A stretch of 64,000 nucleotides of DNA. Origin: Aeromicrobium yanjiei (GTDB taxonomy: Bacteria > Actinomycetota > Actinomycetes > Propionibacteriales > Nocardioidaceae). The notes beneath the pieces are model-generated. The model made no database searches and was not told where the DNA came from. It saw only the letters and a program-made list of their open reading frames with translations. The DNA lies in assembly GCF_009649075.1 (NCBI RefSeq), contig NZ_CP045737.1, positions 1,922,001-1,986,000 on the forward strand. The letters run 5' to 3'. The translations under genes and the position numbers were made by a program. Shown one piece after another: positions 330 to 48,849 of the stretch; position 1 is the stretch's first letter, and each line of letters starts with the position of its first letter.

Positions 330-343
330 ATCAGTAACCTGAT
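330..343. promoter_or_regulatory. Candidate operator, site A (ATCAGTAACCTGAT)
   Basis: The 14-mer matches 11 of 12 fixed positions of the palindrome ATCAGTnnACTGAT seen at other catabolic promoters (counted by eye). Here it is extended to a perfect inverted repeat with 7-base arms CAATCAG/CTGATTG around TAAC at 328-345. It lies about 100 bases upstream of the acyl-CoA dehydrogenase that starts at 228. Confidence 0.55.
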
Positions 344-355
344 TGTCGGCAGGCC

Positions 356-1129
356 TCAGCGCCCCAGCCAGACCGGCTTGCGCTTCTCCAAAAAGGATCG
401 GACGCCCTCCTGGGAGTCCTCGCTGCCCACGAGCGCCTCCTTCGCGTCCTCCGTCGCCTCCCACCCGGCCCGCGTCCCGGCGTCGAGCGTCACCTGTATG
501 GCTCGTAGACAGGCCTGGACCGATGTCGGCGAGTTCTCACAGATTCGCTCGGCGAGCAGCACCGCCTGCTCGAGCGCCTCGCCGGGCGGGGTGAGCTGAT
601 TGACGAATCCGGCCTGCCACGCCCGCTCGGCTCCGATCGGGCGGCCGGTCAGAATCAGCTCGCGAGCGAGGTTGACCGGAAAGATCTGCGGAGCACGGAA
701 CAGCGCCCCGCATGTCGGGACCACGCCGATCGCGACCTCAGGTAGACCGAAGACGGCAGCGGAGGAAGCCACCACCAGATCGCAGCTCAACAGGATCTCG
801 AGACCGCCCCCGAGAGCCGGACCCTCGACCGCCGCGATCAGCGGCTTGCTGCGCGCCCGGCGGATGATGCCGTACTCACCGCCGCGTTCGGTGACATAGT
901 CCCCGCCTGCGGTCAGGTCGCTCCCGGCGCAGAAGGCCTGGGGCACCCCTTCGAGGACGCCCGCCCAGAGCTCGTCGTCGCCCTCCAGCAGGTTGAGCTC
1001 ACGGTCAAGAGCGTCGGCCATGTGCCGATCGATCGCATTGCGCTTGTCGGCGCGGGCCATCGTGATGATCAGCACGTGCCCCTGTCGCCGGGAGCTGACC
1101 CGTCCGTTGAGCGCATCTTCTTCAAGCAT
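356..1129 (-). CDS. Enoyl-CoA hydratase/isomerase family protein
   Basis: Crotonase-fold protein of 257 residues. The oxyanion-hole segment AFCAGSDL and the GGGLEILLSCDL segment are present, followed by FGLPEVAIGVVP. Both glutamates used by enoyl-CoA hydratases (in GGGLE and in LPEV) are in place, so hydration of a 2-enoyl-CoA is plausible. The C-terminus FLEKRKPVWLGR is typical. The ATG at 1129 is chosen because GGAG sits 7 bases before it; an in-frame TTG at 1150 lacks a good site and runs into the operator-like palindrome. Divergent from the DUF2889-type gene at 1205. The exact enoyl-CoA substrate cannot be told. Confidence 0.85.
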   Translation of the reverse strand: MLEEDALNGRVSSRRQGHVLIITMARADKRNAIDRHMADALDRELNLLEGDDELWAGVLEGVPQAFCAGSDLTAGGDYVTERGGEYGIIRRARSKPLIAAVEGPALGGGLEILLSCDLVVASSAAVFGLPEVAIGVVPTCGALFRAPQIFPVNLARELILTGRPIGAERAWQAGFVNQLTPPGEALEQAVLLAERICENSPTSVQACLRAIQVTLDAGTRAGWEATEDAKEALVGSEDSQEGVRSFLEKRKPVWLGR

Positions 1130-1150
1130 GTCGGTCTCCGTGATGATCAA

Positions 1151-1164
1151 ATTGGTTAACCTAT
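1151..1164. promoter_or_regulatory. Candidate operator, site B (ATTGGTTAACCTAT)
   Basis: Palindromic 14-mer with a GTTAAC centre, matching 8 of 12 positions of ATCAGTnnACTGAT. It lies in the divergent promoter region, 21 bases from the hydratase start at 1129 and 40 bases from the plus-strand start at 1205, so it could control both. Confidence 0.4.
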
Positions 1165-1204
1165 CGTGTCATATGATCGTCGCCGACATTCCGAGGGAAG
1201 ACCC

Positions 1205-2218
1205 ATGAGTTCCCGCGCCCTCCACCCCGATCGCGGGCCGCACCGGCCCGTAGAGGCAACTCCCGCCCGCGCACCACGCTCGGCCCGACGAACTGCGACG
1301 ATGGACTCGATCCGCACCGACGGTCTCACCGGACCGCTGCGCCTCATTGGACACTCGCGTGACGTCGTCACGCTTGCCGACGGACAGCTCGAAGTCGTCG
1401 GCGACTCGCACCTGGAGGCCCGGGTCGAGTACCTCGACAGCCGTCGGATCTCTGAGCTCAGGTCGCAGCCGGCCGACCGTCGACTCGACGGGCTGGTCGG
1501 CGCCAGCGCGGCAAGCGGCTTCCGCGGCAAGATCCTGCATGCCCTGCCCGACCAGGTTGCCCAGGCCACCAGGCTGCACCTCCTGCTCGACGACATCCCG
1601 GTGGCAACCCTCGTCTCCGGCCACGCGGTCGTCTCGGGCGGTGTCAGGTCCGTGAACCCCGCGTCGGACCACGCGCCACCAGCCGATCTGTGCTCAGGCT
1701 GGCGCAGCGGGGGCACGATCATGCTCCAGATCGAGAAGTCTGGTGCAGCCCCGATCGTGACCGGCCCCGCGACCCCCGATCTGATCGATGCCGGCGATCC
1801 GGCGGCATGGCATGAGCTGCCTCCACTTCCCCCGCATGGCATGCGCAGGGCCCGCCGCCTGGACGTGAGCGTCCAGGGCGCCGACGTCGTGCTCGACAGC
1901 CATTTCCGCGACAGCCATGTCGACGCGCTCGGGTTCGAGCAGACCGTGCACGAGTACAACGTCACGATGCGGCTCGATCGCGCGTCACTGGTGATCCACG
2001 AGGTCGAGGCGACGACCCGCGTACTCCCCTGGGTCGAGTGCCCCCACGCGACGCGGAGCTCCGAGCGCCTGCTGGGGCTGGACGTGCGCGAGCTGCGGCC
2101 TTGGGTCCGTGCCGAGATGACCGGCATCGACACCTGCACGCATCTCAACGATCAGTACCGTTCGATGGCCGACGCCGTCGCCTTGCTGGACGTCCTCGCC
2201 GCTCATAATCTTGATTAA
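1205..2218 (+). CDS. DUF2889-type protein of unknown function
   Basis: Protein of 337 residues. The middle part has RRLDVSVQGADVVLDSHFRDSH and the C-terminus has TCTHLNDQYRSMADAV, a pattern I associate with the DUF2889 family; this is from memory and unverified. No catalytic function is established for that family as far as I know. No signal peptide or membrane segment is visible. The ATG at 1205 follows GAGGGAAG with good spacing; an in-frame GTG at 1166 would add a very arginine-rich leader and has no ribosome site. It is divergent from an enoyl-CoA hydratase and precedes an SDR on the same strand with a 95-base gap, suggesting a role near CoA-thioester metabolism. Confidence 0.65.
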   Translation: MSSRALHPDRGPHRPVEATPARAPRSARRTATMDSIRTDGLTGPLRLIGHSRDVVTLADGQLEVVGDSHLEARVEYLDSRRISELRSQPADRRLDGLVGASAASGFRGKILHALPDQVAQATRLHLLLDDIPVATLVSGHAVVSGGVRSVNPASDHAPPADLCSGWRSGGTIMLQIEKSGAAPIVTGPATPDLIDAGDPAAWHELPPLPPHGMRRARRLDVSVQGADVVLDSHFRDSHVDALGFEQTVHEYNVTMRLDRASLVIHEVEATTRVLPWVECPHATRSSERLLGLDVRELRPWVRAEMTGIDTCTHLNDQYRSMADAVALLDVLAAHNLD

Positions 2219-2313
2219 TTGTATTAACTAAATATATGCTGGTCGGAGTTTTGACGTGGCCCGGCCACCGGTCGACGGCCCCTAGCCCCCGGAACATCAG
2301 AGGAGACGTGCAG

Positions 2314-3090
2314 ATGAACATCACAGGTGCAGTAGCGCTGGTCGCCGGCGGCGGCGGCGGATTCGGTGCGGCCACGGCCCGCCGCCTCCACGCGGCAGGC
2401 GCGAGCGTCGTGATCTGCGACCTCGACGCGGTCAAGGGCAAGGCTGTGGTCGAGGACCTCGGCGAGCGTGCGGTCTTCGTCGAGACTGACGTGACCGATG
2501 AGGCGAGCGTCCAGGCGGCCATCGACGCCGCTGAGAAGCTCGGCAGCCTGCGCATCACCGTGATCGCCCATGGTGGACCCGGCGGCGGACGCACGCTGAA
2601 CCGCGAGAACGAGCCGATCGCACAAGATGACTTCATGCGCGTCGTCAACATCTTCCTCGGCGCCTCCTACAACCTCATCCGCATGACCGCAGCGAGCATG
2701 GCCAAGACCGAGCCGCTCGAGACCGGCGAGCGCGGCGTCATCATCAACACCGCCTCGATCGCGGCGTTCGACGGCACGATCGGTCAGGCCGCCTACAGCG
2801 CGGCCAAGGGCGGCATCGTCGGGATGACGCTGCCCATCGCGCGCGATCTCTCCCCCATCGGCGTCCGGGTGATGACCATCGCCCCCGGCACGTTCCTCAC
2901 CCCCGCGTTCGGCGACGCCGACCCGGTCAAGCTCGACGCCTACTGGGGCGCGGCGGTGCCGTTCCCCAAGCGCATGGGACGCCCCGAGGAGTACGCCCAG
3001 CTCGCCCTGCAGATCTGTGAGAACCCGTATCTCAACGGAGAGACGATCCGCCTCGACGGCGCGCTTCGCTTCACGCCCAAGGGCGCCTGA
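2314..3090 (+). CDS. SDR, 3-hydroxyacyl-CoA dehydrogenase type II-like
   Basis: Short-chain dehydrogenase of 258 residues. The nucleotide-binding loop reads AGGGGGFGAATARRL at residues 11-25 and the acidic DLD near residue 37 suggests NAD(H). The catalytic set is Ser148, Tyr161 and Lys165 (YSAAK). The C-terminal NPYLNGETIRLDGALRF and the overall pattern resemble type-2 3-hydroxyacyl-CoA dehydrogenase (HSD17B10/FabG-like), which oxidises 3-hydroxyacyl-CoA and also 2-methyl-branched forms. The usual NNAG is replaced by AHGGPGG. ATG at 2314 follows AGAGGAG by 8 bases. It fits the third step of beta-oxidation in this cluster; the substrate is inferred. Confidence 0.75.
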   Translation: MNITGAVALVAGGGGGFGAATARRLHAAGASVVICDLDAVKGKAVVEDLGERAVFVETDVTDEASVQAAIDAAEKLGSLRITVIAHGGPGGGRTLNRENEPIAQDDFMRVVNIFLGASYNLIRMTAASMAKTEPLETGERGVIINTASIAAFDGTIGQAAYSAAKGGIVGMTLPIARDLSPIGVRVMTIAPGTFLTPAFGDADPVKLDAYWGAAVPFPKRMGRPEEYAQLALQICENPYLNGETIRLDGALRFTPKGA

Positions 3091-3101
3091 CCAGCCCCCG
3101 A

Positions 3102-3169
3102 CCAGAAGTGCGGAGTCTTGCACGGTTCGAACGCTTAGAACCGTGCAGGACTCCGCACTTTTGGTCTGG
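3102..3169. terminator. Long hairpin between convergent genes
   Basis: Almost complete inverted repeat: CCAGA, AGTGCGGAGTC and TGCACGGTTC on the left pair with GAACCGTGCA, GACTCCGCACT and TCTGG on the right around a 9-base loop, with one mismatch and a small bulge. It lies between a plus-strand gene ending at 3090 and a minus-strand gene ending at 3182, so it probably terminates both. It is longer than most terminators and could belong to a dispersed repeat family. Confidence 0.65.
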
Positions 3170-3181
3170 GGGGAACCGGGA

Positions 3182-4672
3182 TCAGACCGTGGCCTGATCT
3201 TCGAGCAGCTTGGTCAGCACCGTGCGTCGGACCAGCTTGCCGGTCACGGTGCGCGGCAGCTCATCCCAGTACACGATCCGGTCGGGAGTCTTGCTGCCAC
3301 GCAGCGCCGATCGGACGAATGCGCGCAGATCTTCGGCCGACACGTCGACGCCGGGCCTGATCACGGCAGCCGCCTCGATCCGCTGGCCCCACTCCTCGTC
3401 GGGCACGCCGACGACTGCGACATCCAGGACGGCCTCGTGGCGCAGCAGCACCTCCTCGATCTCCGCCGGGGCGATGTTCTCCGCGCCACGGATGATCGTG
3501 TCGTCGAGTCGGCCGGCAATGAACAGGTAGCCCTCCTCATCGACGTACCCGTTGTCGCGGGTGTCGAAGAAGCCGCGCTCGTCGACGGCCTTGCCGATTC
3601 CGGCGTACTCGGCCGAGACCTGATCGCCGCGCACGCAGATGCGGCCCGTGATGCCGGGACCCACCGGCTGATCGTCGTGGCCTCTGATCTCCAGCTCGAT
3701 GCTCGGAACGATCTTGCCGACCGAGGACAACCGTGCGCGGACTGCAGGATCGTCGCTCGCGAGCGCGACGCGGTGATCCTCCGGACCGAGCACCGCGACC
3801 GTCGAGCTGGTCTCGGTCAGTCCGTACGCATTGACGAAGCCGATCTCCGGCCACATCGCGAGGGCCTTCTCGATGACCGCCGACGGCATCGGCGCTCCCC
3901 CGTACGCGAGGGTCTGCAGCCGAGGAAGCTCCTTGGGAGCATCGGACTCGACGATGCGCGCCAGCATCGTGGGCACGACCAGGGCGTTCGTGACTCCCTC
4001 TTTCCGGGCGGTGTCGAGCCACTGGTGCGGAGCGAACTGCTCGAGCACGATCGACCGCCGCCCGGCGAAGAGATTCGTGATGACATTGGCCACTGCGGCG
4101 ATGTGGTACGGCGGGACGCTCATCAACGCCGCATCGTCCGGGTCGGCCGAGGCGAACTCGACGGAGCCCAGGACGTACGAGACCAAGTTGTCGTGATGCA
4201 GGAGCACCCCCTTGGGCGCGGAAGTCGTCCCGCTCGTGTAGATGATGACCGCCGGCGAATCCGACTCCACCTCGATCGGCGCAGCGACACCGCGACTGAC
4301 CTCGAGCCACTGCTCGGGGGTGACCGCCGAGATGCCGGCGCGCTCGAGGAGCGGAAGCTGCGCTTCGTCCGCGATGCCGTACGCGCGAGGGTGGTTGGCC
4401 AGCAGCGAGCTGAGCTGCTCGTCACCGAGGCGATAGTTGACCGGCACGATCGGGACACCGGCGAACGCCGCGGCGAACATCGCCACTGGGAAGGCCGGGC
4501 CGTTGACAGCCAGGTACACGACCGAGTCGGCTTCGGCATCGCGGATGGCAGCAGCCCCCGACTCGGCCATGGCCTTGAGCTCCGCAGCGCTCAGGCCACC
4601 GTCGAGTCGCCCAATGACCGTGCGGTCGCCGAATCCATCGGCCGCCATCTCGAGCAGCATCGTCAGCTTCAC
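3182..4672 (-). CDS. AMP-forming acyl-CoA ligase (ligase 1)
   Basis: ANL-superfamily enzyme of 496 residues that would activate a carboxylic acid to its CoA thioester through an acyl-adenylate. The P-loop-like motif is IIYTSGTTSAPKG (about residue 145), the A5 motif AYGLTE is intact, the hinge region is GYLFIAGRLDDTIIRGAENIAP, and the A10 lysine is in LPRTVTGKLVRR. Length is normal for medium-chain or aromatic acid ligases. GTG start at 4672 with GAGGAG 8 bases upstream, 10 bases after the stop of the small gene at 4683, so the two are co-transcribed. Substrate unknown. Confidence 0.85.
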   Translation of the reverse strand: MKLTMLLEMAADGFGDRTVIGRLDGGLSAAELKAMAESGAAAIRDAEADSVVYLAVNGPAFPVAMFAAAFAGVPIVPVNYRLGDEQLSSLLANHPRAYGIADEAQLPLLERAGISAVTPEQWLEVSRGVAAPIEVESDSPAVIIYTSGTTSAPKGVLLHHDNLVSYVLGSVEFASADPDDAALMSVPPYHIAAVANVITNLFAGRRSIVLEQFAPHQWLDTARKEGVTNALVVPTMLARIVESDAPKELPRLQTLAYGGAPMPSAVIEKALAMWPEIGFVNAYGLTETSSTVAVLGPEDHRVALASDDPAVRARLSSVGKIVPSIELEIRGHDDQPVGPGITGRICVRGDQVSAEYAGIGKAVDERGFFDTRDNGYVDEEGYLFIAGRLDDTIIRGAENIAPAEIEEVLLRHEAVLDVAVVGVPDEEWGQRIEAAAVIRPGVDVSAEDLRAFVRSALRGSKTPDRIVYWDELPRTVTGKLVRRTVLTKLLEDQATV

Positions 4673-4682
4673 GGCGCGCTCC

Positions 4683-4991: not shown

Positions 4992-5036
4992 GATGACTCC
5001 ACAACTAGATTCTCGGAAATTACTGCTAATGACTAT

Positions 5037-5050
5037 ATCAGTGAACTGTT
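5037..5050. promoter_or_regulatory. Candidate operator, site D (ATCAGTGAACTGTT)
   Basis: Matches 11 of 12 positions of ATCAGTnnACTGAT. It is located 45 bases upstream of the GTG start of the small gene at 4991, in the short gap after the stop of ligase 2 at 5058, so it would control the small protein/ligase 1 unit. Confidence 0.55.
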
Positions 5051-5057
5051 ACCGAAA

Positions 5058-29066: not shown

Positions 29067-30269
29067 TCAGACGTCCCAGACCAGCGGCAGCGCGGTCAGC
29101 CCGAGCTGGCCTCCGGTCTCCATCAGCTCCGCGCCGTCGGCGACGCGGTAGCTGGGGATGCGCTTGTGCCACTCCTCCAGGCCGATCTTGAGCTCACGAC
29201 GCGCCAGGTGCGATCCGAGGCAGCGGTGCGGGCCCGCCCCGAACGCGATGTGGTTGTTCGGGCTGCGATCGATCTTGACGGTACGCGCATCCTCGAACTC
29301 GGCACTGTCGCGGGTCGAGGCGTACAGCGGGATCTGGACCATGTCGCCGGCCTTCATCGGGCAGCCCTGGATCTCGACGTCCTTCATCACCTTGCGGGCG
29401 GGCGAGACGATCGCGTACGCACGCACGAACTCCTCGATCGCCGTGGGGATCAGCTCGGGCTCGGCCACGATCCGCTCGCGGTCTGCCGGGTTGTTGGCCA
29501 GGTGCAGGAACGACCACCCGAGCGTCACCGAGACGGTGTCCATGCCGGCCATGAACATCAGCAGGCAGAACGAGAGCAGGTCCTCGTCGCTCACCGGCTT
29601 GCCGTCGACCTCGAACTTCATCGCCTTGCTGACGATGTCGTCCTTCGGCTCCTCGCGGCGCTCGGCGACAACCTGGGCGAACCGTGTCATCACCGCACCC
29701 ATCGCGGCGATGCGCGCCTCGCCGCCCTCGGGGCCGCGCGCGGTGTGCAGGATCGCGTGCTCCCACTCCATGAACTGGTCGAGCTCCTCGACCGGGAGAC
29801 CGATCAGCTCAAGGAAGATCGACGTCGGGAACTGCTGGGCGAAGTCGGCCATGAAGTCGCAGGAGCCCTTGTCCTTGATGGCCTCGATCAGGTCGACCGC
29901 CCGCTGACGGACCTTGGCGTCGAGCAGCTCGGTCTGCTTGGGCGAGAACAGCGGTCCGAGCTGCTTGCGCCACTGCAGGTGCTCGTCGCCGTCGAGCATC
30001 TCCGGGATCCACTTGTAGCTCGGGTTCGGATCGACCGGGGTGACGACGCTGTTGGAGAAGGTCTCGGGCGACTGCAGGATCTCCAGGATGCCTTCGTGAT
30101 TGATCATCGACCAGAAGCCGTTGGCGAAGTCGTTGCGGAACCACGGGAACTGCTCGCGCAGCTCGTCATAGGTCCGGGTCCAGGTGCCGGCGGGCTTGTG
30201 CTCGCTGTAGTCGAAGTTCAGGACGGGGCACTCCGCCGTGCTCTGGTCGGTGGTGTCGGTCGCACTCAT
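29067..30269 (-). CDS. Cytochrome P450 monooxygenase
   Basis: Soluble class I-type P450 of 400 residues. I-helix AGMDT is at 241-245 with the oxygen-activating Asp-Thr, the K-helix ExxR is Glu280-Arg283, and the heme loop FGAGPHRCLG has Cys350 as ligand. The C-terminus TALPLVWDV resembles that of P450cam (CYP101), a loose resemblance. It would hydroxylate a hydrophobic compound using electrons from the nearby ferredoxins. ATG at 30269 with AAGGAG 6 bases upstream. Downstream of the ferredoxin reductase gene with a 145-base gap that contains the palindrome AGCGATATCGCT, so it may have its own promoter. Likely the entry enzyme of the pathway. Confidence 0.92.
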   Translation of the reverse strand: MSATDTTDQSTAECPVLNFDYSEHKPAGTWTRTYDELREQFPWFRNDFANGFWSMINHEGILEILQSPETFSNSVVTPVDPNPSYKWIPEMLDGDEHLQWRKQLGPLFSPKQTELLDAKVRQRAVDLIEAIKDKGSCDFMADFAQQFPTSIFLELIGLPVEELDQFMEWEHAILHTARGPEGGEARIAAMGAVMTRFAQVVAERREEPKDDIVSKAMKFEVDGKPVSDEDLLSFCLLMFMAGMDTVSVTLGWSFLHLANNPADRERIVAEPELIPTAIEEFVRAYAIVSPARKVMKDVEIQGCPMKAGDMVQIPLYASTRDSAEFEDARTVKIDRSPNNHIAFGAGPHRCLGSHLARRELKIGLEEWHKRIPSYRVADGAELMETGGQLGLTALPLVWDV

Positions 30270-30361
30270 GAAAGCTCCTTGAAGATGTGTCAGCCAACGC
30301 GCCGAAGGCGCACCCTGGGGTCGGGCTCCTCCAAGCATGGCCCACTGTGACGCCGGTTACA

Positions 30362-30373
30362 AGCGATATCGCT
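30362..30373. promoter_or_regulatory. Perfect palindrome AGCGATATCGCT upstream of P450
   Basis: Perfect 12-base palindrome in the 145-base gap between the ferredoxin reductase stop and the P450 start, about 95 bases from the start codon. It does not fit the ATCAGTnnACTGAT pattern. It could be a separate operator; function unproved. Confidence 0.3.
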
Positions 30374-30414
30374 AAATGATCGCCCTTGTTTGGCTGATCG
30401 GATGAATCGTCCGG

Positions 30415-31764
30415 TCAGGGTCCCTGCGATACCGGGCTGTTCGATCTGACGCCAGCCGCGTCCAACAGCTCGTCCCAGGTGTCGACCTTGACGTTTCCAC
30501 GCCCGTGGGTCTCTCCGTGGAGCGCTTCGTGGGCGGCGATGGCGGTCCATGAGCTCCGATCGACGCAGCTGATCCCGCGGTCGCGCAGCAGCTGAGCCAC
30601 GCCCGGCTTGAGCCCTCCCGCGTCGTACATGCCGCCGGCAATGTCCGCCTTGAGGCTCTCGACGGCATCCTCGGCATCGGCGCGGTTCGTGCCCAGGATG
30701 CCCGTGGGGCCCCGCTTCACCCACCCGACCACGTACTCCCCCATGCTCGGAGCGCCGGACCGGACGACACGGCTCGCCTCGGACGGGATGGTCGCGGTCT
30801 CCTCGTCGAACGGCACTCCGGGAAAGGGCAGCGCCCGGTAGCCAACGGACCGCAGCATCATCTGAGCATCGAGGTCCCACTGTCTCGTCTCCCCCCCGAT
30901 CGACTCCTCGACCCGGAGGCCGGACATCGCCCCCTGGCCCATGACCTCGACCGGGCGGGTGTCGAAGTGCAGGTGCAACCGGCGGCCGGCGCCCGTCAGC
31001 TCGCGCTCGGCCCACCCCGCAAGGACCTTGAGGTTCCGCTTGACCGCGGGCGTGTGGCCATCCGGATCGATGCCCTCGAGGTGGCGGGGATCCAGCACGA
31101 CGTCGACACCGTCCAGCTCACCCAGCTCCCGTAGCTCCTTGGTCGTGAACTTCGCGTACTGAGGGCCCCGACGGCCGAAGACGTGAACGTCCCGGACCTT
31201 GTTGCCTCGAAGAACCTCAAGGACACGGTGAGGCACATCCGTGATCGCGAAGTCATCCGCCGACTTGAGCAGGATGCGGGCGACGTCCAGAGCGACGTTG
31301 CCGGCGCCGATGATCGCGACAGACTCCGCCTCCAGCGCATCGAAGCGGTCACCTTCGGGGTGGCCGTTGTACCACTTGACGAACGACGTCGCGGAGATGC
31401 TGCCGGGTAGATCCTCGCCCGGAATGCCGAGACGGCGATCGCTGCTGGCTCCGGTCGCGTAGACCACGGCGTCGTAGTTCGCGCGGATCTCCTCGACCGT
31501 CACATCGTTGCCGACGTCGACATTGCACAACAGGTTGACGTCGGGACGATCGAGGATCTCTTCGAAGGTCGCGCCGGCCGCCTTGATGTTCGGATGGTCG
31601 GGGGCGACGCCGTACCTGAGCAGTCCCAAGGGGGTCGGCAGCCGCTCGATCAGATCAACGACAATCTGCCCCCCGTCGCCGTACGTCAGGTGATCGGCGG
31701 TGAAGAACCCAGCCGGCCCCGCTCCCACGATCGCGACGCGAGTGAACTGCTTCGGACTTGCCAT
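30415..31764 (-). CDS. Ferredoxin-NADP+ reductase, adrenodoxin reductase/FprA type
   Basis: Flavoprotein of 449 residues, the usual length for FprA. FAD-binding VAIVGAGPAGFFTAD lies at residues 9-23, then GVAPDHPNIK (typical of the family), an NADP-binding IIGAGNVALDVARILL and the C-terminal YVVGWVKRGPTGILGTNRADAEDAVESL. It transfers electrons from NADPH to ferredoxin. ATG at 31764 follows AGGAG by 8 bases; the longer upstream frame is arginine-rich and rejected. It lies between the P450 (downstream, same strand) and the 7Fe ferredoxin (divergent), so it very likely feeds the P450. Confidence 0.9.
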   Translation of the reverse strand: MASPKQFTRVAIVGAGPAGFFTADHLTYGDGGQIVVDLIERLPTPLGLLRYGVAPDHPNIKAAGATFEEILDRPDVNLLCNVDVGNDVTVEEIRANYDAVVYATGASSDRRLGIPGEDLPGSISATSFVKWYNGHPEGDRFDALEAESVAIIGAGNVALDVARILLKSADDFAITDVPHRVLEVLRGNKVRDVHVFGRRGPQYAKFTTKELRELGELDGVDVVLDPRHLEGIDPDGHTPAVKRNLKVLAGWAERELTGAGRRLHLHFDTRPVEVMGQGAMSGLRVEESIGGETRQWDLDAQMMLRSVGYRALPFPGVPFDEETATIPSEASRVVRSGAPSMGEYVVGWVKRGPTGILGTNRADAEDAVESLKADIAGGMYDAGGLKPGVAQLLRDRGISCVDRSSWTAIAAHEALHGETHGRGNVKVDTWDELLDAAGVRSNSPVSQGP

Positions 31765-31836
31765 GCTGGCGTTCTCCTTCGACCCGAGGCGCCTCCCACG
31801 GGCGGCAACACGCCGGGGACGTACGCCTAACTTAGT

Positions 31837-31851
31837 GTTAATATAACTGAA
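31837..31851. promoter_or_regulatory. AT-rich palindrome GTTAATATAAC in divergent promoter
   Basis: GTTA-ATA-TAAC at 31837-31847, continued by CTGA. The ATATAACT core is shared with site L at 42968, and TTAATATAA is shared with 34187-34199. It lies between the ferredoxin reductase and the 7Fe ferredoxin. It may be a weak (7 of 12) member of the operator set or only a -10 region. Confidence 0.25.
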
Positions 31852-31912
31852 TAAGTGAGTCGCGTCACGAGGCCTCGCGACCACGTTTCGACCAGAGCCC
31901 TCAGGAGGTTCG

Positions 31913-32239
31913 ATGACCTACGTAATCACCGACGCATGCGTCGATGTCATGGACAGGTCGTGCATCCGGGAATGCCCCGTCGACTGCATCTACGAGGGCA
32001 AACGCCAGGTCTACGTGCATCCCGATGAGTGCATCGACTGCGGTGCGTGCGAGGCGGTCTGCCCCCAGGATGCGATCTTCTACGAGGCCGACATGCCCGA
32101 TGAGCTGAGCGTCATGGTCGAGCGACAGGCGAGCATGTTCGTCTCCCTCGGACGACTGGGCGGGGCTCGCAAGTTCGGCCCGCTCGGCAAGGACCACCCG
32201 GACGTCGAGGCGCTGCCTCCTCGTACCCCCAACGACTGA
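31913..32239 (+). CDS. 7Fe ferredoxin (3Fe-4S plus 4Fe-4S)
   Basis: Ferredoxin of 108 residues. Cysteines at 9, 17, 21, 25, 40, 43, 46 and 50 give the spacing of 7Fe/8Fe bacterial ferredoxins (C-x7-C-x3-CP, then CxxCxxC-x3-CP). The long acidic C-terminal tail is normal for actinobacterial FdxC-type proteins. It carries electrons from the FprA-type reductase, next to which it is divergently transcribed, to the P450 or another oxygenase. AGGAGG lies about 4-5 bases before the ATG. A hairpin terminator follows. Confidence 0.9.
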   Translation: MTYVITDACVDVMDRSCIRECPVDCIYEGKRQVYVHPDECIDCGACEAVCPQDAIFYEADMPDELSVMVERQASMFVSLGRLGGARKFGPLGKDHPDVEALPPRTPND

Positions 32240-32259
32240 GCACAGCACACGAACGACAA

Positions 32260-32296
32260 AGCTGGCCCCACCTGGATGATCCGGGTGGGGCCAGCT
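32260..32296. terminator. Bidirectional hairpin terminator
   Basis: 13-base stem AGCTGGCCCCACC / GGTGGGGCCAGCT with a loop of about 11 bases and following CTGTTC, between the convergent ferredoxin genes ending at 32239 and 32315. Confidence 0.75.
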
Positions 32297-32314
32297 CTGT
32301 TCAGCGACTCGTGA

Positions 32315-32503
32315 TCAGATCGCGGCGATCGCCCGCTCCGGGCAGGACGCCGCCCCAGCTCGTGCCCTGTCCTCCGCGCCGGCGGGGACCTCTTCCTCCG
32401 TCACGGCGGAGTAGCCGAGGTCGTCCAGCGGGAACAGCTCCGCGTCGGCCGCATAGCAGCGAGCGTGCCCCGAGCACTTGTCCTGGTTGACTGCAATCTT
32501 CAT
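32315..32503 (-). CDS. [3Fe-4S]-type ferredoxin, P450 partner
   Basis: Small ferredoxin of 62 residues with Cys10, Cys16 and Cys54 in the pattern KCSGHARC ... SCPERAI. His13 replaces the second cysteine of a 4Fe-4S motif, the CxxHxxC...CP signature typical of single-cluster ferredoxins encoded next to actinobacterial P450s. ATG at 32503 with GGAG 5 bases before it. Last gene of a two-gene unit after the aldehyde dehydrogenase (45-base gap). The likely direct electron donor to the P450 at 29067. Confidence 0.9.
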   Translation of the reverse strand: MKIAVNQDKCSGHARCYAADAELFPLDDLGYSAVTEEEVPAGAEDRARAGAASCPERAIAAI

Positions 32504-32548
32504 GATGCTCCATTCACTCCGTTCAACGAATCGTGGTGTGTGCCCCTG

Positions 32549-34027
32549 TCAGCCCTCTTTGGCACTCCACGTGATCGACTTGGTCTGCAGGAACTCGTCG
32601 AGCCCTGCCTCACCCCATTCACGACCCAGGCCGCTCTGCTTGTAGCCACCGAACGATGCGTGCGGCGTCACGCCGCCGCCACCACCGTTGATGCCGACCA
32701 TGCCCGTTCGCAGCTGCTTGGCGATCCCATAGGCGCGCACTGGACTCTTGGACCAGACCGCACCTCCGAGCCCGAAGTCGCTGTCGTTCGCGAGCTTGAC
32801 CGCCTCGGCATCGTCCTTGAAGGAGATGACGACGCCCACGGGGCCGAAGAACTCCTCCTGAGCGATCGACATCGAGTTGTCGACGTCGACGAACAGCGTG
32901 GGCTCGACGAAGAAGCCCTTGTCGAGTCCGACCGGACGCCCGCCGCCGTAGGCGATCTGCGCGCCTTCGTCCTGCCCCTTGCGGATCAGCTTCTCGACCT
33001 TGTCGCGCTGGGCAGCGCTGATCAGCGGCCCCATGACCGTCTCGGGATCGGCCGGATCGCCGACCTTGATGTAGTCGAGCGCAGCCTTGATCATGCCGAT
33101 CAGCTCATCCTTGCGCGACTCGTGCACGATCGTGCGCGTCAGCAGCGAACAGCCCTGGCCTGCGTGCACCGTGATGCCCATGATCACATCGCGCACGGCC
33201 AAGGTGAGATCGGCGTCCTCGCAGATGATGTTGGCAGATTTGCCGCCGAGCTCGAGGACGACCTTCTTCATGGTCGGCGCGGCCTGGGCGTACACGAGAC
33301 GACCCACGGTGTCCGAACCCGTGAAGCTCACCAGATCGACCATCGGATTGGTGGTCAGCTCCTGGCCCGCTGCGATGTCGCCGGTCACGACGTTGAAGAC
33401 TCCTGGCGGGACACCCGCCTCATCTGCGAACTCCGCGATCAGGAAGGCCTCGAGCGGCGTGGTGGGCGCAGGCTTGAGGATCACGGTGCAGCCGGCCGCA
33501 AGCGCCGGCGCGACCTTCATGATGTTGAGGAAGAACGGGAAGTTGTAGGCCGAGATCAGCGCGGTCACGCCGAACGGCTCACGCCGGATGACTCCCTGAC
33601 CGATCTGCCCGGCGGCCTCGTTGATCGTCGGCGTCATCGCCTTCTCGTACGGGAACGTGACCATGGCTCGCTCGGCCATGTCTCGGAAGTTGGAGATCGG
33701 GATGCCGACCTGGATCGAGTCGGCCAAGGCCCGGGTCGAGCCGCACTCGCGCATGTTGAGCTGGATGATCTCCTCGCGGCGACGATCCATGATGTCGGCC
33801 ATGCGGAGGAGCACCTCTGAGCGCTCCTTGACGGTCATGGTCGGCCACGGCCCGTCGTCGAATGCGGTACGCGCCGCCTGGACTGCTCGGGCGACGTCGG
33901 AAGAAGTCGCCTGCGGCACCCGGCCGATGACCTCTTCGGTCGCCGGGTTGATGACCTCGATCATCTCCGAGCCGTCGCTGTCCCGCCATGCGCCATCGAT
34001 GTACAGCTTGTACGTATGAACAGCCAT
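32549..34027 (-). CDS. Aldehyde dehydrogenase (NAD(P)+)
   Basis: ALDH superfamily enzyme of 492 residues. Catalytic Glu259 is in LELGGKS, nucleophile Cys293 is in HAGQGCSLLTR, and EEFFGPV is present in the C-terminal half. NPATEEVIGRV and SFTGSDTVGR are standard. It oxidises an aldehyde to the acid that a CoA ligase could activate. ATG at 34027 follows GAGGAAG by about 8 bases; earlier in-frame codons run into a promoter region. Candidate operator J lies 34 bases upstream. Together with the SDR at 34236, it fits oxidation of a P450-made alcohol. Confidence 0.92.
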   Translation of the reverse strand: MAVHTYKLYIDGAWRDSDGSEMIEVINPATEEVIGRVPQATSSDVARAVQAARTAFDDGPWPTMTVKERSEVLLRMADIMDRRREEIIQLNMRECGSTRALADSIQVGIPISNFRDMAERAMVTFPYEKAMTPTINEAAGQIGQGVIRREPFGVTALISAYNFPFFLNIMKVAPALAAGCTVILKPAPTTPLEAFLIAEFADEAGVPPGVFNVVTGDIAAGQELTTNPMVDLVSFTGSDTVGRLVYAQAAPTMKKVVLELGGKSANIICEDADLTLAVRDVIMGITVHAGQGCSLLTRTIVHESRKDELIGMIKAALDYIKVGDPADPETVMGPLISAAQRDKVEKLIRKGQDEGAQIAYGGGRPVGLDKGFFVEPTLFVDVDNSMSIAQEEFFGPVGVVISFKDDAEAVKLANDSDFGLGGAVWSKSPVRAYGIAKQLRTGMVGINGGGGGVTPHASFGGYKQSGLGREWGEAGLDEFLQTKSITWSAKEG

Positions 34028-34061
34028 CTTCACTCTTCCTCGCGCCGGAACCATTAATTAT

Positions 34062-41724: not shown

Positions 41725-41738
41725 AGCAGGCTCTCGGG

Positions 41739-43919: not shown

Positions 43920-44723
43920 ATGACCACACCCGGAATCGTCGGTCCGACGACGGACGACCGCACGCTGCTCGAGATGCTCGAGCTCGAGACGATCGACACG
44001 AACGTGTTCCGCGCCAATTTCGTCTTTCCCGATCACTACGCGCTCTACGGGGGCCAGGTGGCGGCCCAGGCGCTGCGCGCTGCCGGACTCACCGCCGAGG
44101 GCCGGCTGCCCCACTCGCTCCACGGCTACTTCCTGCGCCCCGGTGACGCCTCCCGTCCCATGCTGCTGAAGGTCTACCGCGATCGAGACGGCCGATCGTT
44201 CTCGGCCCGCCGCGTCGTGGCGCTCCAGGAGGGAGAGGTGATCTTCAACATGTCTGCCTCCTTCTCGACACCTGCCGACGGCGACGACCGTCAGATCGCC
44301 CAGCTACCCGACGTATCGGCTCCCGATGAGAATCGGGTCTACACGATTCCCCGACTCTTCTCCTTCGAGGGACGAAAGGCCGAGCAGGCCCTTCCGGGTC
44401 TCGAGTATCCGATCAGGTTCTGGGCGCGGTGCACCGCTCCCCTGGGGACGGACCCGCTGCTGAACGCGTGCGCCCTGACCTACCTGTCCGACATCTCGAG
44501 CGGCACGGCCGCCTTCAACACGCCGACGCACGCCACATCCTCGAGCCTGGACCATGCGATGTGGTTCCACCGACCGATCATCGCGAACGACTGGCTCCTC
44601 GTCGACCTGGTGCCACACACGCTCGCGGCGGGGCGGGGCTGGTACACGGGGTCGATTTTTCACTCCGATGGCAGCTTGGTAGCGAGCCTCACACAGGAGG
44701 CCTTGTTCAGAAGGCGACATTGA
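43920..44723 (+). CDS. Acyl-CoA thioesterase II (TesB-like)
   Basis: Double-hotdog thioesterase of 267 residues. ALYGGQVAAQALRAAGL (41-57), LHGYFLRPGD, LTYLSDISSGTAAF and SLDHAMWFHRPI are typical; Asp191, Ser208/209 and Gln259 occupy the TesB catalytic positions. It cleaves acyl-CoA to free acid. ATG at 43920; the ribosome site is weak (ACGGA). Ends 56 bases before the GntR regulator gene on the same strand, which has its own candidate operator. Second TesB-like gene of the window. Confidence 0.82.
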   Translation: MTTPGIVGPTTDDRTLLEMLELETIDTNVFRANFVFPDHYALYGGQVAAQALRAAGLTAEGRLPHSLHGYFLRPGDASRPMLLKVYRDRDGRSFSARRVVALQEGEVIFNMSASFSTPADGDDRQIAQLPDVSAPDENRVYTIPRLFSFEGRKAEQALPGLEYPIRFWARCTAPLGTDPLLNACALTYLSDISSGTAAFNTPTHATSSSLDHAMWFHRPIIANDWLLVDLVPHTLAAGRGWYTGSIFHSDGSLVASLTQEALFRRRH

Positions 44724-44735
44724 CGGTGTTATCCG

Positions 44736-44749
44736 AGTCGATTACTGAT
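44736..44749. promoter_or_regulatory. Candidate operator, site N (AGTCGATTACTGAT), regulator gene
   Basis: Matches 8 of 12 positions of ATCAGTnnACTGAT with a perfect ACTGAT half. It lies 30 bases upstream of the GntR-family start at 44780, the expected place for autoregulation. Confidence 0.4.
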
Positions 44750-44779
44750 ATCACCTCGATTGAGATGTAGGCTGCAACT

Positions 44780-45589
44780 ATGAGTACGACGAGTACGTCC
44801 CATGACGACATCATGCAAGTCGGTAAGGTCATGCGTGCGCCGAAGACCGCCGAGCTGATCGCGACCCATCTGCGCCGCCAGATCGTGAAGGGCGAACTCA
44901 CGCCCGGCGAGACGCTGCCGCCCGAGGTTCAGCTGATGTCCCAGTACGGCGTCTCGCGGCCCACGCTGCGCGAGGCCTTCCGGATCCTCGAGACCGAGAC
45001 GCTGATCAGCGTCCGTCGAGGCTCACGGGGCGGCGCCCAGGTCATGCAGCCCGACATCTCGGTGGCCGCCCGATACGTCGGTCTGCTGCTCCAGATCTCG
45101 GGCACCACGATCGACGATGTGTACGAGGCCCGCAAGGTGTCCGAGCCCGAGTGCGCTCGCCTGCTGGCGAAGACCCGCACCAAGCAGGACATCGCCGATC
45201 TCCAGAGCTGCATCGAAGATCTGCGGAAGGTCGTCGAGGCCGGCACGAAGGCTGTTCCCGATCCGAGTCGTTGGTCGGGCCTGACCTACAAGTTCCATGA
45301 GCTGATCATGCAGCGGTGCGGCAACAAGACCCTTGCCGTGCAGGGCGCGGTGCTGCACGACATCGTGACCACCCACCTCGAGCTGTCGGTCGCCACCAAG
45401 TTCGACCAGGGTGACAGCTCTGAACGGTTCCAGCGAGTCATCAAGGCCTACGAGAAGCTCGTTGCTCTCGTCGAGGCCAAGGACGGCGACGGTGCTGCCG
45501 AGCACTGGCGCAAGCACATGGACGTCGCAGCGAAGTACCTGTTCCAGAACGACCTCAAGAACAAGCCCGTGGTCGACTTGTTCGCCTGA
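44780..45589 (+). CDS. GntR-family regulator, FadR/FCD subfamily
   Basis: DNA-binding protein of 269 residues. A winged helix-turn-helix spans about 20-88 (KTAELIATHLRRQIVKGELT, then LPPEVQLMSQYGVSRPTLREAFRILE and GSRGGAQV in the wing). An all-helical FCD ligand domain spans about 110-245, with a likely metal/effector-binding set in the FHELIMQRCGN and EHWRKHMDVAAKYL regions. FadR-type proteins usually repress catabolic genes and release DNA on binding an acid or CoA ester. It is the only transcription factor in the 48-kb catabolic region. ATG 44780 is used, though the ribosome site is weak and ATG 44831 is possible. Confidence 0.87.
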   Translation: MSTTSTSHDDIMQVGKVMRAPKTAELIATHLRRQIVKGELTPGETLPPEVQLMSQYGVSRPTLREAFRILETETLISVRRGSRGGAQVMQPDISVAARYVGLLLQISGTTIDDVYEARKVSEPECARLLAKTRTKQDIADLQSCIEDLRKVVEAGTKAVPDPSRWSGLTYKFHELIMQRCGNKTLAVQGAVLHDIVTTHLELSVATKFDQGDSSERFQRVIKAYEKLVALVEAKDGDGAAEHWRKHMDVAAKYLFQNDLKNKPVVDLFA

Positions 45590-45606
45590 TCCACCTCACA
45601 CAGCTG

Positions 45607-45637
45607 AAAGCCGAAGTGCCTGATGGCCTTCGGCTTT
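45607..45637 (+). terminator. Hairpin terminator
   Basis: Perfect 10-base stem AAAGCCGAAG / CTTCGGCTTT followed by CTG, 18 bases after the regulator stop. Confidence 0.7.
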
Positions 45638-45736
45638 CTGCGTTCCAGATCGTGACCACGCGCGGCCATGCGTTATACAGTTAGATTAGCGTGCGATATC
45701 TGACCAGCTGCCGCGGTCTCGAGCAAGGACACTGTG

Positions 45737-46537
45737 ATGACGTCTGAACCCCTTCGTCCCGACGACTTCCTCCGCCTCGACGAGCGGGTCGCCCTCGTCA
45801 CGGGAGCCGGACAGGGCGTGGGCGCGAGGATCGCCCGCTATCTCGCAGCCAGCGGGGCACGAGTCGTGGTCAACGACTACTTCGCGGATCGTGCGGCCGA
45901 GGTGGCACAGAGCATCGTCGACGCGGGCGGCGAGGCGATCGCCCTCGCGTGCGACGTCAGCGACTTCGCATCGGTCTCATCGATGCTGGCACAGGCCGAG
46001 CACGAGCTCGGACCGGTCAGCATCCTGGTCAACAATGCCGGCAACGCCGGCGCTCGCGGCACCTTTGACTCGATGGCGATCCCGTTCTGGGAGTCCGATC
46101 CGTCCGACTGGCAGCCATTCCTCGACGTCAATCTCACGGGCGTCATGAACTGTTGCCGGGCCGCCATGCCGGCGATGGTCCGCGGCGGTCACGGCCGCAT
46201 CATCACGATCGTCTCGGACGCCGGACGCGTGGGCGAGCCGAGCCTGCCCGTCTACGCCGCGGCCAAGGCCGGAGCCGCAGGCTTCATGCGCTCGATCGCC
46301 AAGGCCGGCGGACGCCACCTGGTCACGGCCAACTGCGTCTCGCTGTCGACCATTCGTGACTCCGATGCGGCCGCCGATCCCGAGAAGGACGCGAGGCACC
46401 TGCGCGACTACACGATCAGGCGCTTCGGCACGCCGGACGACGCGGCCGGCGTGGTGCTGCTCCTGGCATCGGAGTCCGGTTCGTGGATCACGGGTCAGAC
46501 CATCCCGGTGAACGGCGGATACTCCTCGGCGCTGTGA
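45737..46537 (+). CDS. Short-chain dehydrogenase/reductase
   Basis: SDR of 266 residues. VTGAGQGVGARIARYLAASG (21-40) is the cofactor loop, with Asp47 after beta-2 suggesting NAD(H); NNAG is at 99-102, and Ser160, Tyr173 and Lys177 (YAAAK) form the catalytic set. C-terminal SWITGQTIPVNGGYSSAL is standard for FabG-like enzymes. It may act as a 3-hydroxyacyl-CoA or alcohol dehydrogenase. ATG at 45737, 7 bases after AAGGA; GTG at 45734 is possible. The 147-base region upstream contains the regulator terminator and an AT-rich promoter around 45672-45690. Ends 22 bases from the convergent lactonase gene. Confidence 0.83.
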   Translation: MTSEPLRPDDFLRLDERVALVTGAGQGVGARIARYLAASGARVVVNDYFADRAAEVAQSIVDAGGEAIALACDVSDFASVSSMLAQAEHELGPVSILVNNAGNAGARGTFDSMAIPFWESDPSDWQPFLDVNLTGVMNCCRAAMPAMVRGGHGRIITIVSDAGRVGEPSLPVYAAAKAGAAGFMRSIAKAGGRHLVTANCVSLSTIRDSDAAADPEKDARHLRDYTIRRFGTPDDAAGVVLLLASESGSWITGQTIPVNGGYSSAL

Positions 46538-46559
46538 CAGCCCACGCCGGCAGCAGACG

Positions 46560-47477
46560 TCAGCTCCCGGCGGGCGTCGCGATCCGGTACGGCTGCGGTG
46601 CTCCGGGGACCTCGACGCGCGTCTTGGCGATGTGCGGGTTCACGATCGATCCCACGAGGAGGTCGCGCCGGTCGGGTCCGGTGAACACCGGGTTGGTCGG
46701 CCAGCCGAGATCGGTCTCGGCGGGGTCGAAGGCGTACATCTGCACGTCCTTGCCGCCCGGGGCGATCACCGCCAGCGCATTGCGGTTGTAGACACCGACC
46801 CACAGCGCCCCCGACTCGTCGAAGGCCATGCCGTCCGGGCCCGCCGCCATGAGCTCGGCCTCCAGGCCGTCCTCGGGCAGGATGCAGTAGGTCTCGAGCT
46901 CGCCCAGCCCGCCGCCCGGGAGGATCGCGGCACGGCTCAGTCGGCCGGTGAACGTCTCGGCGACGTACAGGTGTCGGCCGTCCGGCGACAGGGCCAGACC
47001 GTTGGCGAAGCTGAGCCCGTCGGCCAGGATCTCCGAGCTGCCGTCCGGCCTCCGCACGAACAACCAGCCATCCGGATCGGCCAGCATCTCGGGAATCTTG
47101 TCCGGGCCGGGGTGGGGGAAGCGGGTGGACTCGGTGGCCCAGACGAAGCCGTTCGCATCAGCCAGCGCGTAGTTGGCGTGCGTGACTGCCTGGCCGTCGA
47201 CCACGTCGATCAAGGTCTCGACGGCACCGTCGGCGGTGTCGAGCACCTGCAGCGCCCCTTCGAAGTTGGCGATCAGCAGCCGTCCGTCGGGCAGGAAGTT
47301 GAGGCTGTTCGGCTCTCCCCCGGCCTTGCCGATCTGAGTGATCGAGCCGTCAGAGGCCACCCGGGCAGCTGCACCGGCCTTGTCGCTGACCCAGATGGAA
47401 CCGTCCGGAGCCTCCGCGATGTCCTCGGGCCGGGTGACACCGGATCCGAACGGTTCGAATGTCAGGGTCTCGCTCAT
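46560..47477 (-). CDS. SMP-30/gluconolactonase-like beta-propeller
   Basis: Protein of 305 residues with repeated propeller blades: RPEDIAEAPDGSIWVSD, PNSLNFLPDGRLLIANF, FANGLALSPDGRHLYVAET and GPDGMAFDESGALWVGVYN. These carry the Glu, Asn and Asp positions used for divalent metal by SMP-30 lactonases (PED, PNSLN, FANG, DGMAFD). It would open a lactone, for instance one formed from a cyclic ketone or hydroxy acid. ATG at 47477, 5 bases after GGGAGG. Divergence and strand suggest a single-gene unit downstream of the ferredoxin reductase at 47567, 89 bases away. Confidence 0.83.
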   Translation of the reverse strand: MSETLTFEPFGSGVTRPEDIAEAPDGSIWVSDKAGAAARVASDGSITQIGKAGGEPNSLNFLPDGRLLIANFEGALQVLDTADGAVETLIDVVDGQAVTHANYALADANGFVWATESTRFPHPGPDKIPEMLADPDGWLFVRRPDGSSEILADGLSFANGLALSPDGRHLYVAETFTGRLSRAAILPGGGLGELETYCILPEDGLEAELMAAGPDGMAFDESGALWVGVYNRNALAVIAPGGKDVQMYAFDPAETDLGWPTNPVFTGPDRRDLLVGSIVNPHIAKTRVEVPGAPQPYRIATPAGS

Positions 47478-47566
47478 CATTGCCTCCCAGTGCGTGACGG
47501 CCATCTGCCGACCCCGACATTGTTCTACCTATTTGTACTAAACACAAGGCATATGGCGAGAAGCGG

Positions 47567-48769
47567 TCAGGAGACGGCGGACGATCGTGCAGAGAGCATT
47601 CCCTCGGCCACCAGGGGCCGGTACTTCCCGATCAGGCGTGGAGAGCCGAAGGTCGCCACGGCCACCAAGGACTCGCCGTCGTGATAGCCGTACACGGCGG
47701 AGCCGCTGTCGGCGTCCTGCTCGAGCCAGCCACCCGTCCGTGCCATCTCGGTGCGCCCGATCACCTGGATCTTGATGCCGTGCTGATCCGACCAGAAGTA
47801 GGGCGCCTGCCGCAGGTAGTCCGGCACCGGAAGACCCAGGATCGTGTGAGCCACGATGGCGGCCTGGTCGCCGGCCGTCGACCAGTGCTCTCGGCGGGTC
47901 GGCAGCCCGGTGAGCTCGTCGCGCCACCGGGCGACGTCGCCGAGCGCGTAGACCCCATCCAGACCTTCGACCGCGCCCGATCCGTCACACAAAACCCCGC
48001 CGACGACGTCGAGTCCGAGTCCGTCGAGCACCCCCGTGTTGAGGGACGCACCCAGCCCGACCAGCGCCAGGTCTGCGGTGACGTGGGTGCCGTCCTCCAG
48101 CGTCACGGTCACCCCGCCGTCCGCACCGGAGAGCCCTCGTACAGGGCTGCCGGAGAGCACCCGCACCCCGTGGCGACGGTGCAGCTCGGAGCAGTACTCA
48201 CCCGCCTCGGCACCGAGCGCACGGTGGAACAACGTCGGCATGGCCTCCACGATCGTGACGTCCACCCCGAGCACCCGGGCAGCGGCGGCCACCTCACCAC
48301 CGATGAAGCCTCCGCCCACGACGACCAGCGACTCGGCCGCGGGCAGCGCCGAGCGCAGGCGCATCGCGTCATCGAGGGTGCGCAACCGGTGGATGAGCGG
48401 ATGGTCGGGGACGAAGTCAGGCATCCGCGCCTCGGCGCCGGTCGCCACCACGACGACGTCGAAGTCCTCGGTCGAGCCGCTGGCCAAGTGGACGCGCCCG
48501 GGCGTCACCGCGCGAACGACGGCTCCCGGCCGAAGGTCCAGGGACAGCGCCTCGAGCTCGGCATCATCGGCGAGCCGAGCCTCGTCCACGGTCCAGTCGC
48601 CGAGCAGGATCTGCTTCGACAGCGGAGGCCGATCGTACGGAGGGTGCGTCTCGGCGCCGAACACGACCAACGGCCCGGTGTGCCCCAGTCGGCGCAGATC
48701 GGCCGCGACGCGGAAGCCTCCGAGGCCACTTCCCACCACGCCGATACGACAGGACTCGACGGCTGACAT
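47567..48769 (-). CDS. Ferredoxin reductase, putidaredoxin/rhodocoxin reductase type
   Basis: FAD-dependent reductase of 400 residues. FAD motif IGVVGSGLGGFRVAADLRRLG at the N-terminus, YDRPPLSK (typical of oxygenase-coupled reductases), NAD motif VVVGGGFIGGEVAAAARVLG and the second FAD motif GVYALGDVARW. It passes electrons from NAD(P)H to a ferredoxin, serving a P450 or Rieske oxygenase. This is a second reductase of another family besides the FprA-type one at 30415. ATG at 48769 with AGGTGG upstream. Candidate operator Q lies 66 bases upstream. Confidence 0.87.
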   Translation of the reverse strand: MSAVESCRIGVVGSGLGGFRVAADLRRLGHTGPLVVFGAETHPPYDRPPLSKQILLGDWTVDEARLADDAELEALSLDLRPGAVVRAVTPGRVHLASGSTEDFDVVVVATGAEARMPDFVPDHPLIHRLRTLDDAMRLRSALPAAESLVVVGGGFIGGEVAAAARVLGVDVTIVEAMPTLFHRALGAEAGEYCSELHRRHGVRVLSGSPVRGLSGADGGVTVTLEDGTHVTADLALVGLGASLNTGVLDGLGLDVVGGVLCDGSGAVEGLDGVYALGDVARWRDELTGLPTRREHWSTAGDQAAIVAHTILGLPVPDYLRQAPYFWSDQHGIKIQVIGRTEMARTGGWLEQDADSGSAVYGYHDGESLVAVATFGSPRLIGKYRPLVAEGMLSARSSAVS

Positions 48770-48835
48770 GGCCCACCTCATTCGCAACGAATCGGATCCT
48801 GCGCATCCCTGCTGGGTCGTCCAGCAAACATCTAG

Positions 48836-48849
48836 ATAATCGTACTGTT
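48836..48849. promoter_or_regulatory. Candidate operator, site Q (ATAATCGTACTGTT)
   Basis: Matches 8 of 12 positions of ATCAGTnnACTGAT and shares ACTGTT with site D. It lies 66 bases upstream of the ferredoxin reductase start and is the right-most site noticed. Confidence 0.35.

What the first reader, a model, noticed from the sequence alone, without database searches (positions are those of the whole stretch)
330..48849. A recurring palindrome (ATCAGT-nn-ACTGAT) marks about twelve catabolic promoters: a candidate one-regulator regulon
Reading the intergenic regions by eye, a 14-base palindrome recurs at 330, 1151, 5037, 16300, 25528, 27989, 34062, 40220, 42968, 43849, 44736 and 48836. Matches to ATCAGTnnACTGAT are 11, 8, 11, 11, 9, 9, 10, 9, 9, 9, 8 and 8 of 12. 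All lie upstream of at least one catabolic gene, often in divergent gaps, and I noticed none in the housekeeping block. The only transcription factor in the catabolic region is the FadR-type GntR at 44780, whose own promoter carries a site. GntR/FadR operators generally have GT-n-AC-type centres, which agrees for most sites.
Basis: partly seen in the sequence, partly recalled or inferred. Interest (0 to 1): 0.78.

Follow-up and report, generated by a model that had tools for sequence, protein, structure and literature searches.

The report
One-regulator regulon across a catabolic island
The same palindromic DNA tag sits just upstream of genes along a 106-kb island of predicted degradation genes, and again beside relatives of the island's GntR-type regulator in other bacteria, so one protein likely switches the whole island, though its binding is untested.

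Summary
In detail: all 12 sites are at the stated places with the stated match counts; 12 matches in catabolic gaps against 1.34 in shuffles. All three genome-wide matches with at most one mismatch lie in the window. The operator is wider than seen, AATCAGTTAACTGATT. Motif discovery finds it again, without the window, near GntR orthologues of other actinobacteria and in the island left of the window. A matrix from foreign loci alone supports 10 of the 12 sites; 44736 is weak. Sites span about 106 kb, 57 kb of it outside the window. Of 21 same-family genomes searched, three with a regulator of at least 59% identity (own included) hold 4, 10 and 5 strict matches, one with a 58% regulator none, 17 without it 2 in all; in large genomes of another family the pattern does not discriminate. 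New: extra half-sites exactly 9 bp outside the palindrome and a variant operator in one regulator lineage. Binding, repression and inducer are inferred; a TetR gene in the left part keeps a rival alive.

The parts
44780..45589 (+). GntR/FCD (FadR-subfamily) regulator, candidate binder (P0001)
   Evidence: PF00392 67.6 bits and PF07729 74.9 bits, both above cut-off; model and fold neighbours
   Evidence: 17.7 bits with foreign-only matrix
   Evidence: 12.7 bits
   Evidence: 15.8 bits
   Evidence: 15.7 bits
   Evidence: 11.6 bits
   Evidence: 14.8 bits
25517..25543 (.). two operators overlapping with a 9-bp step (cores 25519, 25528), divergent gap 25499(-)/25568(+)
   Evidence: 10.6 and 12.4 bits
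27978..28004 (.). two operators overlapping with a 9-bp step (cores 27980, 27989), divergent gap 27945(-)/28080(+)
   Evidence: 11.1 and 12.2 bits
34051..34077 (.). two operators overlapping with a 9-bp step (cores 34053, 34062), before aldehyde dehydrogenase 34033(-)
   Evidence: 14.9 and 13.2 bits
   Evidence: 12.9 bits
   Evidence: 18.0 bits, best in the window
   Evidence: 17.9 bits
   Evidence: 11.8 bits
   Evidence: 6.1 bits; orthologue promoters L003, L080, L095 carry fuller versions
   Evidence: 14.2 and 8.4 bits

Best explanation
A FadR-subfamily GntR protein encoded at 44780-45589 likely represses much of a 106-kb island of predicted catabolic genes by binding, as one or more dimers, the palindrome AATCAGTTAACTGATT in its promoters. 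Shown: the palindrome lies in gaps upstream of genes along the island, recurs in gaps beside orthologues of this regulator in other actinobacteria, and carries extra half-sites in 9-bp steps. Inferred: that this protein is the binder; that it represses (sites lie a median of 52 bp from the nearest start codon); that neighbouring dimers cooperate on the 9-bp array; and that a CoA ester or acid from the degraded substrate binds the FCD domain, releases the DNA and switches enzymes, transporters and the regulator itself on together.
For: Unseeded motif discovery in the window, and again without the window in six foreign loci (LLR 172.7, best of 4 shuffles 47.4) and in the own island left of the window (59.8 against 37.5). 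Window-trained matrix: 26 of 141 gaps near orthologues of at least 58% against 0.73 shuffled; 0 of 89 near distant GntR genes. Foreign-only matrix: 13 of 41 window gaps, 8 of 43 left-island gaps, 0 of 46 gaps outside (shuffled 0.26, 0.25, 0.35). Genome-wide, 12 of 18 places of the 16-mer pattern with up to 3 mismatches, and all four with up to 2, lie within 96 kb. Same-family genomes: 4, 10 and 5 matches with the orthologue, 2 in 17 genomes without; the listed places cluster near gntR (G744 5 of 10 listed, all within 37 kb; G616 5 of 5 on the gntR contig). gntR promoters carry sites in several orthologues. A lone site at 625,876 precedes a thiolase whose 76% orthologue in L079 lies one gene from gntR and has a site. 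Sites are in 30 of 42 divergent, 18 of 127 co-directional and 0 of 33 convergent gaps.
Against: No binding data. The window's own gntR site is weak (6.1 bits), as in L079 and L082; L083 and L085 have none there. Orthologue loci L082, L083 and L084 yield no motif, and G173 (58% orthologue) has no match in its genome. In f21 genomes the strict pattern does not discriminate: carriers G437 9, G167 2, G245 1; 11 non-carriers 1 to 6. A TetR gene with a site lies in the left island, and related TetR genes lie near gntR in L002, L081 and L095. All foreign loci were fetched with the GntR as bait. The FadR-subfamily TKGT box is not met.
Confidence: 0.8

Rival explanations
1. Another regulator, for example the TetR at L035:10891-11544 (genome 1,892,891), binds the palindrome, and the GntR is a regulon member or bystander.
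For: The TetR gene lies in the island and shares a divergent gap with a strong site (15.7 bits; TetR_N). TetR genes near gntR in L002 and L081 also have sites upstream. Overlapping palindromes read by two dimers are known from TetR proteins (recalled).
Against: The own TetR has no BLAST similarity (E 0.48 or worse) to the TetRs of L002, L081 and L095, which are 49-70% alike among themselves, while operator and GntR are common to all these loci (the GntR by choice of bait). No TetR was seen among the genes scanned or named in L003, L080 and L096, but not every gene there was scanned. The variant operator lies in all four gntR promoters of its lineage, and the gene across that gap had no Pfam match in the two loci tested.
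Confidence: 0.12
2. The palindrome is a general promoter or global-factor element that looks special because the island's gaps are AT-rich.
For: Gaps with sites are AT-rich and many matches are in promoters.
Against: Shuffles keep gap composition and do not give it. 0 of 46 gaps outside the island carry it, and 17 same-family genomes hold 2 strict matches in all.
Confidence: 0.04
3. The sites are leftovers of promoters duplicated together with paralogous catabolic genes, without a shared regulator today.
For: The island holds many paralogues: acyl-CoA dehydrogenases, CoA ligases, hydratases.
Against: Outside about 17 bp from the centre the flanks show almost no shared sequence, and the sites persist in other families of actinobacteria beside different genes.
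Confidence: 0.02

Closest known systems
[quoted passage not shown]
   Same: GntR wHTH plus helical ligand domain; AT-rich palindrome with GT-N2-AC centre; sites often in divergent gaps
   Different: Box beside GT is CA, not TK; 9-bp-stepped extra half-sites; a regulon of many promoters over about 106 kb; GT/AC replaced in the TCTAGA variant lineage
NanR of E. coli (PMC8012715, abstract and passages seen)
   Different: NanR reads GGTATA direct repeats with three dimers through a 32-residue N-terminal extension; here a central palindrome dominates and the part before the HTH is about 18 residues; score 97.3 against a cut-off of 260, so it is not a NanR
KstR/KstR2 regulons of actinobacterial steroid catabolism (recalled, nothing read)
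   Same: One repressor and one palindrome over a large island of acyl-CoA and ring-degradation genes
   Different: KstR proteins are of the TetR family with other palindromes; the candidate here is GntR/FCD and the substrate is unknown

Membership tests
GntR family, FadR subfamily | N-terminal GntR wHTH and C-terminal helical FCD-type domain | tested here: met
   PF00392 and PF07729 above cut-off; AlphaFold2 model pLDDT 81.8, neighbours PdhR, DhdR, NanR, VanR
GntR family, FadR subfamily | Palindromic operator with GT-Nx-AC centre | tested here: met
   AATCAGTTAACTGATT, GT-TA-AC, if this protein is the binder; the TCTAGA variant lineage lacks it
GntR family, FadR subfamily | TKGT/ACMA boxes (common, not obligatory: NanR and BioR are exceptions in PMC4494728) | tested here: not met
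   Box reads CAGT/ACTG. The protein is placed in the subfamily by its domains; this lowers the claim of a typical FadR operator only
GntR family, FadR subfamily | DNA binding released by a small acid or CoA ligand | not testable with these tools
   needs EMSA and ligand assays
NanR | NCBIfam NanR model cut-off | tested here: not met
   97.3 bits against 260
NanR | Array of direct half-sites bound cooperatively by several dimers | tested here: inconclusive
   9-bp direct half-sites in excess; number of dimers untested
KstR-type TetR repressor | TetR_N domain | tested here: not met
   P0001 has GntR and FCD domains only

The most novel reading that the evidence does not exclude
An undescribed actinobacterial regulator family governs large, patchily inherited catabolic islands through operators built as 9-bp-stepped arrays of two to four half-sites, a strong central palindrome with weaker outer half-sites. 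Cooperating dimers read the arrays, so array length sets each promoter's induction threshold, and the operator centre changes from GTTAAC to TCTAGA with the regulator lineage.
Probability: 0.45. Interest if true: 0.68.

Novelty: new variant of a known kind. Interest (0 to 1): 0.52.

Why it matters
It gives a testable regulon (candidate regulator, operator, promoters inside and outside the window, orthologues) for catabolic islands of unknown substrate, and a motif that marks which scattered genes belong to the pathway, as it did for a thiolase 1.2 Mb from the island. The 9-bp-stepped half-sites and the lineage-specific operator centre make cooperativity and specificity of an FCD-type GntR protein directly testable.

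Tried and rejected
Published motif: searches for operator strings (listings of 15 of 564 and 25 of 296 papers seen) showed mostly papers that hold the letters by chance. The one GntR paper opened from them, PMC13274462 (passages), holds ACTGAT only in primers. Searches on GntR and FadR regulons (listings and starts of abstracts) showed no regulon with this operator. Supplements of PMC4494728 and RegPrecise were out of reach, so an earlier prediction there is possible.

Substrate: the P450's best PDB match is CYP101J2; there are a mycofactocin-type SDR and an F420-type enzyme above cut-off and many CoA-ester enzymes. This hints at a cyclic or branched hydrophobic compound and settles nothing. 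DUF2889 is in two papers, not opened.

A first matrix with whole-genome background called AT-rich gaps wholesale and was dropped for matrices with gap background. Unseeded discovery in the variant lineage L086-L089 gave a GC-rich motif (LLR 73.5, shuffles up to 39.6), not the operator variant; the variant was seen by scanning and its pattern was then drawn from the sites it counts. L082-L084 gave nothing above shuffles (36.6 against up to 38.0). HTH position 28 as the cause of the variant: it is Asn in the variant lineage, but V, Q, T, I, S, L or A in the others, so the link is loose.

Selections: the six loci of the foreign blind run (L003, L079, L080, L081, L095, L096) were chosen after their hits had been seen, out of 17 orthologue loci; the foreign-only matrix used eight (plus L001, L002), and its fit was started from the consensus. 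The site statistics used 14 sources; L082-L084 and L086-L090 were left out. Shuffled motif runs had fewer iterations than real ones. Genes were called by my own codon-usage script. Family Nocardioidaceae is inferred from a contig length shared by G744 and a Nocardioides protein record; genus Aeromicrobium is recall.
Full report
Observation. All 12 listed places read as described, with identical match counts. In 35 catabolic gaps there are 12 matches with up to 3 mismatches against a shuffled mean of 1.34; in 8 housekeeping gaps none, with 0.28 expected. Over the whole window the excess is modest, 19 against 11.4 (sd 3.05), because chance matches in coding DNA dilute it. Genome-wide the three matches with at most one mismatch are all in the window. 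Of 30 places outside the window with up to two mismatches 19 are coding and 11 in gaps; in the window 4 are in gaps and 3 coding.

The motif. An unseeded palindromic search of the window's gaps gives aATcAgTTAAcTgATt, well above 12 shuffles.

Independent recovery. In 48 sampled congeners the regulator's best match by E-value is 35% identical (5.8e-33); orthologues of 49-66% exist elsewhere. A matrix trained on the window alone finds sites of at least 11 bits in 26 of 141 gaps of 11 loci with orthologues of at least 58% (shuffled mean 0.73), in 8 of 76 gaps of six loci with 49-57% orthologues (0.24), and in 0 of 89 gaps of 29 short loci around distant GntR genes. Blind discovery returns nAATcAGtTAaCTgATTn from six foreign loci (chosen after hits were seen; LLR 172.7, best of four shuffles 47.4) and nAatgAGTTAACTcatTn from the own island left of the window, never used for training (59.8 against 37.5).

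Extent. Site-bearing gaps run from genome 1,864,664 to 1,970,842, about 106 kb, of which 57 kb lies left of the window. With the foreign-only matrix 8 of 43 left-island gaps, 13 of 41 window-island gaps and 0 of 46 gaps outside carry sites. Left-island genes scanned are acyl-CoA dehydrogenases, a CoA ligase, a CoA-transferase, enoyl-CoA hydratases, SDRs, hydrolases, ABC-transporter parts and a TetR. Of 18 genome-wide places of a 16-mer pattern (up to 3 mismatches) 12 lie in 96 kb of the island, including all four with up to 2; six lie elsewhere; the reversed control has 4. One of the six, at 625,876, precedes a thiolase gene (L092:7013-8161) whose 76% orthologue in L079 has one gene between it and gntR and carries a site too.

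Who binds. (a) Own family, 21 genomes: three with an orthologue of at least 59% (own included) hold 4, 10 and 5 strict matches; one with a 58% orthologue 0; 17 without it 2 in all, with 5 for the reversed control. Elsewhere: f21 carriers 9, 2 and 1, f21 non-carriers (11) 1 to 6; variant-lineage genomes 2 to 5; G132 1, G109 3, G331 1, G346 0. So the test discriminates in the own family only. (b) gntR promoters score 11.9 to 16.9 bits in L001, L003, L080, L095, L096 and L090, 9.2 to 10.1 in L002, L081 and L084, 5.3 to 6.5 in the window, L079 and L082, and 0.6 to 2.6 in L083 and L085 (window matrix). (c) The lineage L086-L089 (54-56%; four near-identical proteins, so one event) carries CTATCRTCTAGAYGATAG-like sites: 15 places with up to 4 mismatches, 11 in gaps and 4 coding, shuffled mean 0.2; 7 of 7 with up to 2 in gaps; one in each of the four gntR promoters (the pattern was drawn from these sites). 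Their recognition helix is the same (VSRPTLREAFRILE); HTH position 28 (my mapping of the numbering in PMC4494728, section 10) is Asn there but varies among the others. Against: the island TetR, and a second TetR family near gntR in L002, L081 and L095, unrelated by BLAST.

How it likely works. Of 202 classified gaps, sites of at least 11 bits lie in 30 of 42 divergent, 18 of 127 co-directional and 0 of 33 convergent gaps; of 56 primary sites 51 are within 150 bp of a start, median 52. That is promoter placement and fits repression (inferred). Second palindromes of at least 9 bits occur 15 times at exactly 9 bp (at 14 sites) against 1.41 in a simulation that allows self-overlap; any other offset has at most 1. 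Outside the palindrome, direct half-sites of at least 4 bits are in 19 of 112 flanks at offset 9, and in 0 to 5 at other offsets from 8 to 35. A stepped array read by several dimers, as NanR does on GGTATA repeats (PMC8012715, abstract and passages), is the likely meaning but not shown; NanR's cooperativity needs a 32-residue extension, longer than the tail here. The model is an ordinary GntR/FCD protein. The effector is unknown; a pathway acid or CoA ester is the guess.

Verdict. Observation and interpretation both stand. The regulon is larger, the operator longer and composite, and the gntR promoter site is the weak link. It is a new regulon of a known regulator type with an operator variant.

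Noticed in passing
L035:10891-11544 (genome 1,892,891), left of the window: TetR-type regulator gene in the left part of the island, sharing a divergent gap with a strong site (15.7 bits) and an enoyl-CoA hydratase gene.
   Followed up: partly
window 1-48900 and genome from 1,864,664: The island's regulator has no close relative in 48 sampled congeners (best match by E-value 35%), while many island genes have 55-78% relatives beside gntR in other genera: patchy, transfer-like distribution.
   Followed up: partly
L086-L089: Operator variant CTATCRTCTAGAYGATAG in gaps including all four gntR promoters; the neighbouring genes scanned (SnoaL-like, alpha-amylase, nSTAND1-WD40 protein) are not the catabolic set.
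   Followed up: partly
L086-L089 gaps: A different GC-rich palindrome (cnGaCcGnnnnCgGtCng) was the top unseeded motif there, above shuffles.
   Followed up: no
window 29067-34054: P450 (best PDB match CYP101J2), ferredoxin reductase, ferredoxin and aldehyde dehydrogenase next to one another, then a mycofactocin-type SDR: looks like an oxidation module for a hydrophobic substrate.
   Followed up: partly
window 44780-45589, residue Tyr224 (alignment A1): His173 and His246 are kept but a nearly invariant Tyr224 seems to stand where metal-binding FCD domains have a histidine (canonical motif recalled), so the usual metal site may be incomplete.
   Followed up: no
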